NCBI RefSeq assembly: GCF_018917965.1
Contig: NZ_JAHLPP010000001.1
Location: 248,001 to 312,000 of the forward strand
Direction of reading: 5' to 3'
DNA length: 64,000 nt
From: Pseudoflavonifractor sp. MSJ-37
GTDB taxonomy: Bacteria; Bacillota; Clostridia; Oscillospirales; Oscillospiraceae
Under the pieces are notes generated by a model. That model was not told the DNA's origin and did not search any database. It saw only the letters and a list, made by a program, of their open reading frames with translations. Shown here in pieces: positions 3,536 to 55,315 of the stretch. The translations under genes and the position numbers were made by a program. How positions within the stretch are numbered: position 1 is the first letter of the stretch; every line of letters begins with the position of its first letter.

Positions 3536-3580
3536 CTGCCGAGGGATCGAAAGCCCTTGATTTTCAAGGCTTTTTTTAGC
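3536..3580 (+). promoter_or_regulatory. CRISPR leader, only 45 bp between cas2e and first repeat
   Basis: The repeat's 3' handle (GTGATCC) shows that crRNA is read on the plus strand, so this short T-rich stretch is the leader end where new spacers enter. It holds an inverted repeat followed by seven Ts. Any longer leader or promoter must lie inside the 3' end of cas2e, or the array is transcribed through from the cas operon. Confidence 0.6.
3552..3577 (+). terminator. Terminator-like hairpin inside the CRISPR leader
   Basis: AGCCCTTGA and TCAAGGCT pair around a TTT loop with one bulged C, followed by a run of Ts. It has the form of a weak rho-independent terminator for the cas operon, but could also be a leader structure used in integration. 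Confidence 0.5.
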
Positions 3581-5865
3581 CTATTCCCCGCACACGCGGG
3601 GGTGATCCCGATTCGCTCGAGGCGATGAGTCCGTCCTTTCCCTATTCCCCGCACACGCGGGGGTGATCCCAATCGGTCAAAATATTTAGGAGGACGAAAC
3701 TTCTATTCCCCGCACACGCGGGGGTGATCCCCGGAGAGGAGAAGCCTGTGGAAAAGTGGTACGCTATTCCCCGCACACGCGGGGGTGATCCTTCTATTCG
3801 GATGTAATGCGTGGGCGGGTAAAACTATTCCCCGCACACGCGGGGGTGATCCCAGCAGGAACTATTGTACCCGCACCCGTAACCGCTATTCCCCGCACAC
3901 GCGGGGGTGATCCTTTGCGTGCGCCTGCGTCTAGAGTCGGACGAACCTATTCCCCGCACACGCGGGGGTGATCCGTACGCCCATTGTGCTGACCGGGCGG
4001 CGGAGCTCTATTCCCCGCACACGCGGGGGTGATCCCATCAGCCCCGGCGGGCTGGTGCGGTACAAGCGCTATTCCCCGCACACGCGGGGGTGATCCTATG
4101 CCGCTAAAGTGAAAGCTGTATGCGAAGAGCTATTCCCCGCACACGCGGGGGTGATCCTTCGAGAAGGGAGCCTTCACCCGGGAAGAGGTCCTATTCCCCG
4201 CACACGCGGGGGTGATCCTCGGTTTCATATACACTCCCCCTTCAAGCCGTTCTATTCCCCGCACACGCGGGGGTGATCCGAGAGGTGGCCCCCGTGGAGT
4301 GGACCATCGTGACTATTCCCCGCACACGCGGGGGTGATCCTCGAAGCGGCCTTATGATGACATCGTGGAATGCCTATTCCCCGCACACGCGGGGGTGATC
4401 CCACCAGCGCCGCCGCCGCCGCCCGTGTCATCACCTATTCCCCGCACACGCGGGGGTGATCCCGGGCCATCGACACGGCCCTTGACGAACGGAAGCTATT
4501 CCCCGCACACGCGGGGGTGATCCCTACCAGAAGCAAGCGACGCTGGACTACACCGGCTATTCCCCGCACACGCGGGGGTGATCCTGAGGACTGGGGCGGC
4601 TCCTGCGCCGCTGCTGACTATTCCCCGCACACGCGGGGGTGATCCCTCAGGGACGCCGAAATAGATGCACAGGGGGCCCTATTCCCCGCACACGCGGGGG
4701 TGATCCCTCCTATATTGGCAATACCTTCCACGGAGTTTTCTATTCCCCGCACACGCGGGGGTGATCCGCTGGTCTGGGGACTTCCCCTGCATCAAACGCA
4801 CTATTCCCCGCACACGCGGGGGTGATCCCGGAGATCGCCTGCATCGGCTGGTGTATCCTGACTATTCCCCGCACACGCGGGGGTGATCCCAGGGCCCGCC
4901 GTAGCTCCGGGTCGTCCTCCACCTATTCCCCGCACACGCGGGGGTGATCCCGATGACATAAACGGTCGTGATAGGAGGAGCACCTATTCCCCGCACACGC
5001 GGGGGTGATCCCGGTCTGGCTGGTGGTCTGGGTGGAGTTGGACGCTATTCCCCGCACACGCGGGGGTGATCCCTCTTCTTTTCGAGCAGGAGGATTTGGA
5101 CCTTACTATTCCCCGCACACGCGGGGGTGATCCCTACGATGACAGCTATCGGGTGGACGCGCACTACTATTCCCCGCACACGCGGGGGTGATCCTGATGC
5201 TCCTGTCCTCCGACCGGAAGGACGGCACTATTCCCCGCACACGCGGGGGTGATCCCGACCGCTATCCCCTATCGCCCGCTCCATGATGCTATTCCCCGCA
5301 CACGCGGGGGTAATCCTACGGCGTGGACCTTTACCGCGAGTGCTACGCCCTATTCCCCGCACACGCGGGGGTGATCCCACAGGAGGACCACAAAATGAAA
5401 ACCGCCGGATCTATTCCCCGCACACGCGGGGGTGATCCTACGCCCTGATCCGCAAGTACATGGATGAGAGCCTATTCCCCGCACACGCGGGGGTGATCCC
5501 TGTGCCCCCGTACCGTCATCTCTCAGTCTGTGCTATTCCCCGCACACGCGGGGGTGATCCGGCTTATGGAGGGTATACAGATCGCCCAGAGCCCTATTCC
5601 CCGCACACGCGGGGGTGATCCCGCCTGAAGGCCGCAGCTTTTCCACTTGCTACACTATTCCCCGCACACGCGGGGGTGATCCCGTCATACAACAATCCCG
5701 CACTGCAATGCGGGGCTATTCCCCGCACACGCGGGGGTGATCCCGGGCAGGGACTATGCATATCATCATACAACCGCTATTCCCCGCACACGCGGGGGTG
5801 ATCCGGTATCTGCGCTGGTGCCCTCGGTGATGCCCTTCTATTCCCCGCACACGCGGGGGTGATCC
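3581..5865 (+). CRISPR. Type I-E CRISPR array, 38 repeats, 37 spacers
   Basis: The 28-bp repeat begins CTATTCCCCGCACACGCG and ends GGGGGTGATCC; spacers are all 33 bp. Repeat starts fall exactly at 3581 + 61n up to 5838, so no spacer differs in length. CCCCGC pairs with GCGGGG to form the Cas6e hairpin, leaving a GTGATCC-type 5' handle. The repeat closely resembles those of other Firmicute I-E arrays such as S. thermophilus CRISPR4. Only one variant repeat was noticed, number 29 (5289-5316), which reads TAATCC instead of TGATCC at its end. The last repeat (5838-5865) is intact, so there is no decayed distal end. First spacer bases are C 22, T 10, G 5, A 0. Confidence 0.99.
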
Positions 5866-9089: not shown

Positions 9090-9290
9090 AGCGTGTCGAA
9101 CCAGCATTTCTGAGATGGGATGCAGGCCGCCGCGCGCACTCGCTGCGCTCGCACACTAGCGGCCCGAGAAGAGTTTTTTCTGAGGCACATGCCCTCAGAA
9201 AAAACGCCTTACATCTGATCCCGTCACCTGCGGGTGACGGAACTCTGCGAGGCTCTTGCATCGCTCAACGTGAGGAATGACTTTTTTGAC
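9090..9290 (+). repeat. Dispersed structured repeat, copy 1 (3' of valS)
   Basis: One of three copies of a 200-250 bp intergenic element. Conserved blocks in order: AGCGTGTCGAACCAG, GGGATGCAGGCCGCCGCGCG, CACTAGCGGCC, the 13-bp perfect hairpin GTTTTTTCTGAGG/CCTCAGAAAAAAC (9173-9205), GCCTTACATCT, the hairpin GTCACC-TGCG-GGTGAC, CTCTGCGAGGCTCTTG, and CTTTTTTGAC at the end. This copy lacks about 50 bp of the left palindrome seen in the others. It begins 9 bp after the valS stop and ends 8 bp before a 14-bp hairpin. Confidence 0.85.
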
Positions 9291-9297
9291 CGTCTGC

Positions 9298-11132: not shown

Positions 11133-12328
11133 CGATCGACACGAGCTGGGTCAGACAGGAGGCCGCCGCCCTCCAGGAGCAGATGGTCCGGGACCGCCGC
11201 TGGCTCCACAGCCACCCCGAGGTGGGCGAGCATCTGCCGGGGACCGTGGGCTATGTGGAGTCCCGTCTGGAGGAGATGGGCATCGCGTACCGGGAGCTCT
11301 GCGACAGCGGACTGGTAGTCCTGCTGGGCGGGAAGCATCCGGGCAAGTGCCTCATCGTCCGGGCGGACATGGACGCCCTGCCCATGCGGGAGGAGTCCGG
11401 ACTGCCCTTCGCCTCCCAGTGCGACGCGGCCCACACCTGCGGCCACGACCTGCACACGGCCATGATGCTGGCGGTCTGCCGCATCCTGAAGGAGCATGAG
11501 GACGAGATCCAGGGCACCGTCAAGGCGGTGTTCCAGCCCGCGGAGGAGAACTTCCGGGGCGCGGCCAAGATGCTGGAGTCCGGCCTTCTGGAGGACCCGA
11601 AGGTGGACGCCGCCGTGACCCTCCATGTGAACTCCATGTCCCCCTATCCAGTGGGGGCCCTGTCCCTGATGCCTGCCGGGCCCATCCTGGCCTCCTGCGA
11701 TACCTACCGTATCGAGGTGGAGGGCGTGGGTGGCCACGGGGCCTATCCCGCCAAGTGCGTGGATCCGATCTCCATCGGCGCCCACATCTTGGTGGCCCTC
11801 CAGCAGATCAACGCCCGGGAGCTGACCCGGGACGAGCCCATCGTGCTCACGCAGGGCAGCTTCCACAGCGGGAAGGCCCCCAACATCATCCCCTCCAGCG
11901 CGGTCATCGAGGGCACCCTGCGGACCTTCGACGAGGATCTGCGCCAGCGCTGTCTCAAGCGCATCGAGGAGATCGTCACATCGGTGGGGGAGATGTACCG
12001 GGCCAAGGCCGCCTTCACGGTGATGGGCGGCTGTTCCCCCATGGTCAACGACCCCGGCCTCCGCTCCGACGCTCTCCGATACTTCCGGGAGATGCTGGGC
12101 GAGGACATGGTGTTCGAGAAAAAAGAAGTGGGCATGGCCAGTGAGGACTTCGGCAATGTCATCAAGTACGTCCCCGGCATCCAGATCACGTTGGTGGCGG
12201 GCAGTACGCTGGATGGCGCCAAGTACCAGCAGCACCATCCCAAGGTGGTGTTCGATGAGGGCATCATGACCAACGGCACCTCGGCCTTCGTCACCTTCGC
12301 CCTCCGCTGGCTGGCGGAACAGCAATAA
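11129..12328 (+). CDS. M20 family amidohydrolase (N-acyl amino acid / hippurate hydrolase type)
   Basis: This 399-residue zinc metallopeptidase of the M20D type probably removes an acyl group from an amino acid or a similar amide. Visible signatures are RRWLHSHPEVGEHLPGT at the start, RADMDALPM, the metal site CDAAHTCGHDLHTAM, and FQPAEENFRGAAKM with the catalytic glutamates. The dimerisation lid carries GVGGHGAYP, and SEDFG is near the C-terminus. No signal peptide is seen, so it is cytoplasmic. The start overlaps the upstream membrane gene by 4 bp. The linkage suggests import then hydrolysis of one substrate class, but the actual substrate is unknown. Confidence 0.9.
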   Translation: MTIDTSWVRQEAAALQEQMVRDRRWLHSHPEVGEHLPGTVGYVESRLEEMGIAYRELCDSGLVVLLGGKHPGKCLIVRADMDALPMREESGLPFASQCDAAHTCGHDLHTAMMLAVCRILKEHEDEIQGTVKAVFQPAEENFRGAAKMLESGLLEDPKVDAAVTLHVNSMSPYPVGALSLMPAGPILASCDTYRIEVEGVGGHGAYPAKCVDPISIGAHILVALQQINARELTRDEPIVLTQGSFHSGKAPNIIPSSAVIEGTLRTFDEDLRQRCLKRIEEIVTSVGEMYRAKAAFTVMGGCSPMVNDPGLRSDALRYFREMLGEDMVFEKKEVGMASEDFGNVIKYVPGIQITLVAGSTLDGAKYQQHHPKVVFDEGIMTNGTSAFVTFALRWLAEQQ

Positions 12329-12360
12329 GACGAAACGATCCCCTTTCCTCCTCTATGACA

Positions 12361-12400
12361 GTGAGCTCCCCGAGACCCATCCGGGTCCGGGGAGCTCACG
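12361..12400. repeat. 40-bp hairpin direct repeat, left copy
   Basis: The 40 bases are identical to 12663-12702. Each copy is a hairpin: GTGAGCTCCCCG-A-GACCC pairs with GGGTCCGGGGAGCTCAC around ATCC, a 17-bp stem with one bulged A. The two copies bracket repeat-element copy 2 with 1-2 bp and about 7 bp to spare. Confidence 0.9.
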
Positions 12401-12401
12401 A

Positions 12402-12655
12402 AGCGTGTCGAACCAGTTCGACACGCTTCTCAGAAATGCTGGTCCGTTCTTTGCGAAGAACGGACCAGTATTTCTTCGATGGGGATGCAGGCCGCCGCGC
12501 GCACTCGCTATGCTCGCACACTAGCGGCCTGAGAAGAGTTTTTTCTGAGGCACATGTCCTCAGAAAAAACGCCTTACATCTGCTTCCGTCCCCTGCGGGT
12601 GACGGAACTCTGCGAGGCTCTTGTATCGCTCAACGTGAGAAATGACTTTTTTGAC
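12402..12655 (+). repeat. Dispersed structured repeat, copy 2
   Basis: The longest copy of the element also found at 9090-9290 and 55088-55315. It keeps the full left palindrome (AGCGTGTCGAACCAG then TTCGACACGCT), then a further hairpin GGTCCGTTCTTTGCGAAGAACGGACC found only here, the shared blocks and the hairpin GTTTTTTCTGAGG/CCTCAGAAAAAAC. It fills nearly all of the space between the M20 gene and sigK. Confidence 0.88.
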
Positions 12656-12662
12656 CGTCTGA

Positions 12663-12702
12663 GTGAGCTCCCCGAGACCCATCCGGGTCCGGGGAGCTCA
12701 CG
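12663..12702 (-). terminator. 40-bp hairpin direct repeat, right copy; sits after sigK
   Basis: Identical to 12361-12400. It lies 10 bp after the sigK stop on the minus strand, so it is probably the original transcript-end hairpin of sigK, and the left copy is its duplicate. No clear T-run follows on the minus strand, so its terminator strength is uncertain. Confidence 0.55.
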
Positions 12703-12712
12703 TCATTTCGGT

Positions 12713-13408
12713 CTATCGCTGACCCTCCATGGCGGCCTCCAGCTTTTGGAGGGCCTTCTTCTCGATGCGGGAGACATAGGACCGGCTGATGCCGCACCGG
12801 GCGGCGATCTCCCGCTGGGTCAGGGGCTCCCGGCCATCCAGGCCGTAGCGCAGACGGATGACCATGGTCTCCCGTTCGTCCAGGACCTCCTCCACACACC
12901 GGCGGACCCGTGCGCAGGAATCCCGGGTATGGAGGGTCTCCAGCATATCATCCTCCACCCGGATCGTGTCTAGGATGGACAGGGAGTCCCCCTCCTCACT
13001 GCCGTCCAGCGTCTCCGACAGGGAGACCTCCCCCTGGAGCTTCCGCTGGGCGCGAAAATGCATCAGGAGCTCGTTCTCGATGCACCGGCTGGCATAGGTG
13101 GCCAGGCGGACGTTCTTATCGGGCTTGAAGGTGCGGATGCCCTTGATGAGCCCGATGGTCCCGATGGAGATCAGGTCATCGGTGTCGCCGTTGGGGGTGT
13201 AGTACTTTTTGACGATGTGGGCCACCAGCCGGAGATTGTGTTCGATGAGGCGGTCCCGGGCGGAGCGGTCTCCGGCCCACATGGCCTCCAGACAGGCCCG
13301 TTCCTCCTCCGCCTTCAGGGGCCGGGGGAAGGACCCGCCCTCCCCGCCGGAGAGCCGCAGGGTCAGGAACAGACTGTTCAGCAGCAGAGCCAGCCACGGT
13401 GCGATCAT
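12713..13408 (-). CDS. sigK: Sporulation sigma factor pro-sigma-K
   Basis: This 231-residue mother-cell sigma factor for late sporulation genes is uninterrupted. After a hydrophobic pro-sequence (APWLALLLNSLFLTLRL) comes FPRPLKAEEE, close to the processing region of B. subtilis pro-sigma-K. Region 2 holds RDRLIEHNLRLVAHIVKKY and DLISIGTIGLIKGI. Region 4 holds LTQREIAARCGISRSYVSRIEKKAL, the -35-binding helix-turn-helix. AGGAGGACATCCT precedes the ATG. No skin-type insertion splits the gene. The presence of sigK argues that the host forms endospores. The promoter is presumably sigma-E dependent, but none was identified. Confidence 0.94.
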   Translation of the reverse strand: MIAPWLALLLNSLFLTLRLSGGEGGSFPRPLKAEEERACLEAMWAGDRSARDRLIEHNLRLVAHIVKKYYTPNGDTDDLISIGTIGLIKGIRTFKPDKNVRLATYASRCIENELLMHFRAQRKLQGEVSLSETLDGSEEGDSLSILDTIRVEDDMLETLHTRDSCARVRRCVEEVLDERETMVIRLRYGLDGREPLTQREIAARCGISRSYVSRIEKKALQKLEAAMEGQR

Positions 13409-38220: not shown

Positions 38221-38248
38221 GTACAAGGACCAGCGGAGGAACGGCTTT

Positions 38249-38295
38249 CTCTCTACTACATATTGTGCTATATTACCACTATATGTAGTAGAGAG
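38249..38295 (+). promoter_or_regulatory. 15-bp inverted repeat in the nrdD leader, NrdR-box-like
   Basis: CTCTCTACTACATAT (38249-38263) pairs perfectly with ATATGTAGTAGAGAG (38281-38295) around 17 bases. Each arm holds a decamer fitting the core of the NrdR box (C-W-A-N-A-T-N-T-W-G): CTACATATTG at 38256-38265 and CTATATGTAG at 38279-38288, centres 23 bp apart. NrdR is the usual repressor of ribonucleotide reductase genes. The spacing is not the common 31-32 bp, and the sites are downstream of the promoter, so a leader hairpin is the alternative. Confidence 0.5.
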
Positions 38296-38370
38296 ACCGC
38301 CGTTTTCCATTGGCCCTCCGCAGGATGCGGGATATCCGGCGGAGCGATACGGAAGAGGAGCGATAGCGAT

Positions 38371-55087: not shown

Positions 55088-55315
55088 GTCAAAAAAGTTA
55101 TTTCTCCCGTTGAGCAGTGCAAGAGCCTCGCAGAGTTCCGTCACCCGCAGGTGACAGAATGAGATGTAAGGCGTTTTTTCTGAGGACATGTGCCTCAGAA
55201 AAAACTCTTCTCAGGCCGCTAGCGTGCAAGCAAAGCGAGTGTGCGCGGCGGCCTGCATCCCATCGAAGAACGAACCAGCATTTCTGAGAAGCGTGTCGAA
55301 CTGGTTCGACACGCT
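55088..55315 (-). repeat. Dispersed structured repeat, copy 3 (inverted)
   Basis: This is the reverse complement of the element at 9090-9290 and 12402-12655. On the minus strand it reads AGCGTGTCGAACCAG-TTCGACACGCT, CTCAGAAATGCTGG, GATGGGATGCAGGCCGCCGCG, the GTTTTTTCTGAGG/CCTCAGAAAAAAC hairpin, GCGTTTTT-type flank, CACCTGCGGGTGACGG, CTCTGCGAGGCTCTTG and CTTTTTTGAC. It lies between the regulator stop (12 bp away) and its terminator. Confidence 0.87.

What the first reader, a model, noticed from the sequence alone, without database searches (positions are those of the whole stretch)
12361..12702. Repeat copy 2 bracketed by an exact 40-bp hairpin duplication
The 40-bp hairpin at 12361-12400 and 12663-12702 is identical. 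If the element inserted by a mechanism that copies its target, a 40-bp duplication would be far longer than that of common transposons. It may instead reflect hairpin-targeted insertion or a slipped-strand event. In copies 1 and 3 the element also abuts a hairpin, which suggests that stem-loops are the target.
Basis: partly seen in the sequence, partly recalled or inferred. Interest (0 to 1): 0.65.

Follow-up and report, generated by a model that had tools for sequence, protein, structure and literature searches.

The report
Terminator-duplicating miniature transposon carrying structured RNA
A short non-coding mobile DNA repeatedly jumps into the hairpins that end bacterial genes and copies the whole hairpin to both of its sides, so that a stop-signal hairpin remains beyond it; the element is new, but it belongs to a known kind of hairpin-seeking jumping gene.

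Summary
A 41-bp hairpin (12360-12400, 12662-12702) brackets a 261-bp element exactly. It is not a one-off: 24 of 30 copies in this genome are bracketed by their own locus-specific, duplicated terminator-like hairpin (18-41 bp). The element's ends (CAGnnTGTCrAAAA) are those of IS1182-family insertion sequences. Intact IS1182 elements of the same end type, in Oscillospirales and on plasmids of Enterococcus, Sutcliffiella, Peribacillus and Cetobacterium, show the same whole-hairpin duplication. Enterococcus plasmids without the IS hold a single hairpin at the same site. So this is a non-autonomous (MITE-like) IS1182 relative that inserts into terminator hairpins and duplicates them. Hairpin targeting by IS1182 elements is in print, and whole-stem-loop duplication was drawn as a possible pathway. 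What seems new is the element: about 140 nt of its interior form a covarying structure absent from Rfam, on the upstream gene's strand in 55 of 63 scorable copies. The cruciform-attack mechanism is inferred; the core's role is unknown.

The parts
12360..12400 (.). Left copy of the duplicated target hairpin (downstream of the + strand amidohydrolase-like gene ending at 12328)
   Evidence: 41-bp exact direct repeat; hairpin fold
12401..12661 (+). MITE-like element, one of 30 scored copies in the genome; no transposase gene
   Evidence: genome search, copy alignment
12401..12413 (+). Left terminal inverted repeat (consensus CAGCGTGTCGAA, here AAGCGTGTCGAAC); its sequence also forms a subterminal hairpin to 12427
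12646..12661 (-). Right terminal inverted repeat (minus strand CAGACGGTCAAAAAAG; family consensus CAGACTGTCAAAAAAG)
   Evidence: pattern search, alignment
12488..12531 (+). Core helix 1 (CAGGCCGC 12488-12495 with GCGGCCTG 12524-12531), covarying
   Evidence: 5 of 8 pairs changed on both sides in 44 sequences
12538..12570 (+). Core helix 2 (GTTTTTTCTGAGG...CCTCAGAAAAAAC), covarying
   Evidence: 11 of 12 pairs changed on both sides, 99.2% of cells paired
12584..12607 (+). Core helix 3 (TTCCGTC...GACGGAA), covarying
   Evidence: 6 of 10 pairs changed on both sides
12606..12618 (+). Near-invariant AACTCTGCGAGGC; may pair back into the loop of helix 1 (pseudoknot, weak evidence)
12662..12702 (.). 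Right copy of the duplicated target hairpin, 3' of the convergent sigK-like gene (12713-13408, minus strand)
   Evidence: ORF
9097..9296 (+). Copy 1 of the element (aligned part); internal deletion; hairpin on the 3' side only
55088..55315 (-). Copy 3 of the element; hairpin on the 5' side only; 3' terminus altered

Best explanation
The element is a non-autonomous (MITE-like) relative of the IS1182-family insertion sequences whose ends read CAGnnTGT. A DDE transposase of that subgroup, supplied in trans, inserts the element into hairpins, mostly intrinsic terminators downstream of genes. The two strand transfers fall at the two feet of the palindrome, as if at the base of an extruded cruciform, so gap filling copies the whole stem-loop to both sides. 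Each insertion leaves a hairpin without its T-tract next to the upstream gene and a second hairpin, with its T-tract, beyond the element, so the transcript can still terminate, now with the element inside its 3' UTR. Shown here: whole-hairpin duplication, shared ends with intact IS1182 elements, the same duplication at those elements, single-hairpin empty sites. Inferred: which transposase moved this MITE, the cruciform geometry, preserved termination, and any role of the structured core.
For: 24 of 30 copies carry a locus-specific duplicated hairpin abutting both ends, null maximum 13.5 against 17.5-41; the duplicated unit is the hairpin itself. CAGNNTGTCRAAAAAG (one mismatch) matches the own genome 44 times (21+23) against 4 for the reversed control, 36 of the 44 at element ends by my count. 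Intact IS1182 transposases (NF033551 well over cut-off; DDE_Tnp_1, DUF772) lie between the same ends: among 21 Oscillospirales loci of this subgroup, 10 show whole-hairpin duplication; of 8 plasmid loci, 5 do. Empty sites: joined E. faecium flanks (IS and one hairpin left out) are covered to at least 80% in one place in 85 of 101 matching plasmid records, E. faecalis 11 of 22; five empty records read base by base hold one hairpin. The own genome keeps a C-terminal IS1182 fragment with the same end beside a hairpin. After the right hairpin copy the next 8 bases hold at least 4 T in 17 of 24 copies.
Against: No intact IS1182 transposase of this subgroup was found in the own genome, so the mobilising enzyme is inferred. 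The structured core was not found in the 35 IS1182 loci, so the MITE is not a simple internal deletion of a known IS; only the ends are shared. 6 of 30 own copies lack the duplication; in relatives only 11 of 51 rows gave a clear hairpin duplication (4 cut by contig ends), and one (L054) gave a 28-bp direct repeat that does not look like a hairpin. Of the 21 IS loci, L107, L148 and L152 have a different hairpin at each end, L095 has one hairpin, L096, L108 and L150 are cut, and L100, L111, L116 and L156 showed no duplication; the fragment L104 has different hairpins at its ends; plasmid L138 has two different hairpins, L140 one, L134 is cut. No transposition assay exists here.
Confidence: 0.87

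Rival explanations
1. RNA-mediated insertion: the element is a SINE-like retroelement copied from the mRNA 3' UTR, inserted near the transcript end by a reverse transcriptase, with the hairpin as a long target duplication.
For: The core is a covarying structure; the upstream gene points at the element's 5' end in 23 of 24 own copies and 32 of 39 scorable relatives; insertion sits at the 3' end of genes.
Against: The element has inverted repeats at both ends, shared with intact DDE-transposase elements that make the same duplication; no retroelement partner was found, though none was searched for systematically; Rfam gave no group II intron match in the stretches searched.
Confidence: 0.05
2. 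Independent origin: slipped-strand replication or segmental duplication produced the double hairpin and the element lies between by chance.
For: Long palindromes are unstable (general knowledge); a few copies have mismatched or loop-inverted pairs (L013, L045, L113).
Against: Exact abutment of both copies on both element ends at 24 different sequences; single-hairpin empty sites.
Confidence: 0.02
3. The element inserted beside one hairpin and a second similar hairpin was later made or kept by selection for termination on both sides.
For: In L020 a stem pair differs between the two copies by changes on both arms (left A-T, right C-G), as terminator selection could cause.
Against: 14 of 24 pairs are letter-identical including loops, and 716 of 735 aligned bases are identical overall (my sums); selection on structure would not keep loop sequences.
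Confidence: 0.03

Closest known systems
IS1182 family, ISCbo5 of Clostridium botulinum group III / C. novyi (PMC3098183, passages read)
   Same: IS1182-family element; the paper states that all insertion sites but one were inverted repeats forming a hairpin, at gene ends, likely transcription stops, and speaks of a 'surrounding hairpin'.
   Different: An autonomous IS; the duplication length is not given in the passages I saw (Table S3 of that paper not seen); no MITE, no structured core.
IS1272 / TnSha1 (IS1182 family; PMC5678879 and PMC4923244, passages read)
   Same: Targets stem-loops and terminators of any sequence; [quoted passage not shown]
   Different: IS1272 replaces or partly deletes the hairpin and leaves no target duplication; here the hairpin is kept twice.
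Prokaryotic MITEs (review PMC10969869, passages read)
   Same: Short, intergenic, terminal inverted repeats, target duplication, stable transcript folds; the review mentions MITE-derived small RNAs in Coxiella.
   Different: The term IS1182 is absent from that review; here the target duplication is an entire hairpin and the core covaries across genera and families.
Group IIC introns and terminators (recalled, no call)
   Same: Insert at terminator hairpins.
   Different: No target duplication, need intron RNA and reverse transcriptase; no Rfam match here.

Membership tests
IS1182 family (autonomous partner) | Transposase matches the IS1182 family model | tested here: met
   L110, L113, L114: NF033551 385-394 bits, cut-off 270; Pfam DDE_Tnp_1_6, DUF772, DDE_Tnp_1
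IS1182 family (autonomous partner) | Inserts into palindromic targets | tested here: met
   10 of 21 Oscillospirales subgroup loci and 5 of 8 plasmid loci bracketed by a duplicated hairpin
MITE of the IS1182 family | Terminal inverted repeats shared with an autonomous element | tested here: met
   CAGnnTGTCrAAAA-type ends at MITE and IS, including the own-genome remnant L105
MITE of the IS1182 family | Makes the same target duplication as the autonomous element | tested here: met
MITE of the IS1182 family | Internal deletion derivative of the IS (feature of many but not all MITEs) | tested here: not met
   the core had no match in 35 IS1182 loci; only the ends are shared, so 'MITE-like' rather than a deletion derivative
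MITE of the IS1182 family | Mobilised in trans by the family transposase | not testable with these tools
   needs a transposition assay
IS1272-type stem-loop replacement | Target hairpin removed, no duplication | tested here: not met
   hairpin present on both sides in 24 of 30 copies
Known Rfam RNA family | Match at gathering score | tested here: not met
   none at gathering in 8 relatives' loci; in window 12200-12900 only sub-threshold hits

The most novel reading that the evidence does not exclude
The element is a mobile 3'-UTR RNA module. By choosing terminators and duplicating them, an IS1182-type transposase places a conserved, covarying RNA of about 140 nt (three helices, near-invariant AACTCTGCGAGGC, possible pseudoknot) in sense orientation between a gene and its terminator, and this RNA has a function (stability, processing into a small RNA, or control of transposition) that keeps it conserved across genera and into another family of the order.
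Probability: 0.3. Interest if true: 0.75.

Novelty: new variant of a known kind. Interest (0 to 1): 0.55.

Why it matters
It gives clean natural evidence, with empty sites, for whole-stem-loop target duplication by an IS1182 subgroup, a pathway drawn but not observed in PMC5678879, and contrasts with the hairpin-removing IS1272. It suggests how a mobile element can use gene ends as safe sites without abolishing termination. The MITE also carries a covarying RNA candidate with no Rfam family, in about 30 copies in one genome, which makes the question of mobile 3'-UTR RNAs testable.

Tried and rejected
Slipped-strand or chance duplication: rejected. Known RNA family: none (gyrA RNA hits at 27.8 and 18.1 bits are far below its cut-off of 45). 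An autonomous element in the own genome by end motif: four of the eight extra motif sites were fetched (L076-L079) and showed no duplicated hairpin or transposase in the stretches I read. Other IS1182 subgroups: 13 loci with at most 37% protein identity to my queries showed no hairpin duplication; 9 loci gave no tblastn match and were not scored. Orientation as MITE-specific selection: not proven. Intact IS elements also lean towards the upstream gene's strand (12 of 17 scorable of 21; P = 0.14), and MITE against IS is not significant (Fisher P = 0.14). My first gene calls by longest ORF had suggested no bias and were replaced by codon-position-aware calls; those are heuristic. RNA against DNA: wobble pairs do not settle which strand folds. 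Loop inversions (L013, L045, L113, and both copies in E. faecalis L136 against three empty records) may point to hairpin opening during insertion or to ordinary palindrome flipping; left open. Different hairpins at the two ends may partly be assembly chimeras: L060 and L065 share a right flank. One search opened an unrelated paper (wrong identifier recalled).

Full report
OBSERVATION. The repeat is real and 41 bp long: 12360-12400 and 12662-12702 are identical. Each folds as one hairpin. Between them lies 12401-12661, an element with 30 scored copies in the 2.58-Mb genome (aligned; a 39-bp partial match on contig 6 was left out).

IT IS A RULE, NOT AN ACCIDENT. Extracting the flanks of all 30 copies shows that 24 are bracketed by a duplicated sequence of 18-41 bp that differs from locus to locus and abuts both element ends, exactly or within a few bases. 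Against 870 pairings of left and right flanks from different copies (maximum score 13.5), the 24 score 17.5 to 41. Fourteen of the 24 pairs are letter-identical, and 716 of 735 aligned bases are identical (my sums). The duplicated unit is the hairpin and little else. The six exceptions are window copies 1 and 3, L024, L027, L028 and L036; several are truncated or have altered ends.

WHERE IT SITS. With codon-position-aware gene calls, the gene on the element's 5' side points at it in 23 of 24 duplicated copies, while the gene on the other side points either way (12 towards the element, 11 away; one copy lacks a call). In relatives it is 32 of 39 scorable copies, with 7 more without a left gene call. 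At least four T follow the right hairpin within 8 bases in 17 of 24 copies; at least four A precede the left one in 6 of 24. The targets therefore look mostly like intrinsic terminators of the upstream gene. After insertion the left hairpin is followed by CAGCGTG... instead of its T-tract; the right one keeps the T-tract. That the transcript then ends beyond the element is inferred.

WHAT MOVES IT. The element ends read CAGCGTGTCGAA on the left and, inverted, CAGACTGTCAAAAAAG on the right. The motif CAGNNTGTCRAAAAAG with one mismatch occurs 44 times in the genome against 4 for the reversed control, 36 of the 44 at element ends by my count. IS1182-family transposase genes (NF033551) were found over the cut-off in 7 of 60 relatives and in 25 of 300 genomes of the family. 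Those of one subgroup carry the same ends. Examples of intact IS with exact whole-hairpin duplications: L109 (30 bp), L110 (29), L114 (31), L144 (30), L146 (29), L147 (28), L149 (39), L155 (34); L113 has the second copy with an inverted loop, and L151 is near-exact. Of the 21 subgroup loci listed, 10 are duplicated; L107, L148 and L152 have a different hairpin at each end; L095 has one hairpin; L096, L108 and L150 are cut; L100, L111, L116 and L156 showed no duplication. On plasmids, 5 of 8 fetched loci are duplicated: Sutcliffiella, E. faecalis pGTC3, Peribacillus, E. faecium and Cetobacterium. Loci of other IS1182 subgroups showed none (13 scored). The proteins are DDE transposases with DUF772. 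The own genome keeps only a C-terminal fragment of such a transposase, with one matching end beside a hairpin.

EMPTY SITES. Joined flanks of the E. faecium site, with one hairpin and no IS, match 101 plasmid records, 85 of them over at least 80% of the query in one place; for E. faecalis 11 of 22. Read base by base, two E. faecium and three E. faecalis empty records hold one hairpin where the occupied plasmid holds two. In E. faecalis the loop of both copies is inverted relative to two of the empty records, and a third has a variant loop of the empty type. Downstream of sigK in relatives G005 and G007 there is one hairpin, of a different sequence, and no element.

MECHANISM. A staggered cut of 18-41 bp would be odd for a DDE transposase on linear DNA. 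It is simple if the palindrome is extruded: the two 5' feet of the cruciform lie next to each other, and attack there followed by gap filling duplicates the whole stem-loop. PMC5678879 (passages read) draws exactly this as pathway b while reporting that IS1272 itself replaces the stem-loop. PMC4923244 (passages) reports partial deletion of terminator hairpins by IS1272/TnSha1. PMC3098183 (passages) reports that ISCbo5 insertion sites, all but one, were hairpins at gene ends. I recall, without a call, that IS1182 entries in ISfinder list direct repeats up to tens of bp. Hairpin targeting is therefore known. I did not find a description of this MITE or of empty-site-supported whole-hairpin duplication in nine searches of the held library (listings seen, and passages of six relevant papers); most subscription papers are not held.

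THE CORE. The MITE interior was aligned from 44 copies, chosen from 68 extracted. For a structure of three helices plus a four-pair pseudoknot candidate, 24 of 34 pairs have changes on both sides and 95.5% of cells are paired; no shuffle reaches this, and sliding the partners drops pairing to 37-50%. An alternative pseudoknot gives similar totals, and neither is strongly supported by covariation. RNAalifold alone finds 17 of 22 pairs with double changes. I wrote the structure from the same alignment, so control b favours it. No Rfam family matches. The element was matched in 20 of 60 listed genomes, the own genome among them, nearly all in the same family and one in another family (G042). Why a parasite of IS1182 should keep such a structure is unknown; a function in the mRNA or in transposition are the two obvious options.

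VERDICT. It is a new MITE-like family and a well-documented case of a known transposase behaviour, hence 'new variant of a known kind'.

Noticed in passing
window 3580-5500 and beyond: Array of about 36 units with 61-bp period; repeat CTATTCCCCGCACACGCGGGGGTGATCC with variable spacers, a CRISPR array (the repeat looks like type I-E; recalled, not tested).
   Followed up: partly
window 38240-38304: 31-bp inverted repeat, 87% complementary with a 3-bp gap, A+T-rich compared with its surroundings.
   Followed up: no
L136 against L143, L157, L158: Both hairpin copies at the E. faecalis insertion have the loop inverted relative to unoccupied plasmids; single copies are inverted relative to their partner in L013, L045 and L113. 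May report on hairpin processing during insertion.
   Followed up: partly
L054 (G034): A core-bearing copy is flanked by a 28-bp direct repeat that does not look like a hairpin, an exception to the rule.
   Followed up: no
L020, G000:C2 near 304975: The two copies of the duplicated hairpin differ by a compensated stem pair (A-T against C-G), suggesting selection on the stem after insertion.
   Followed up: no
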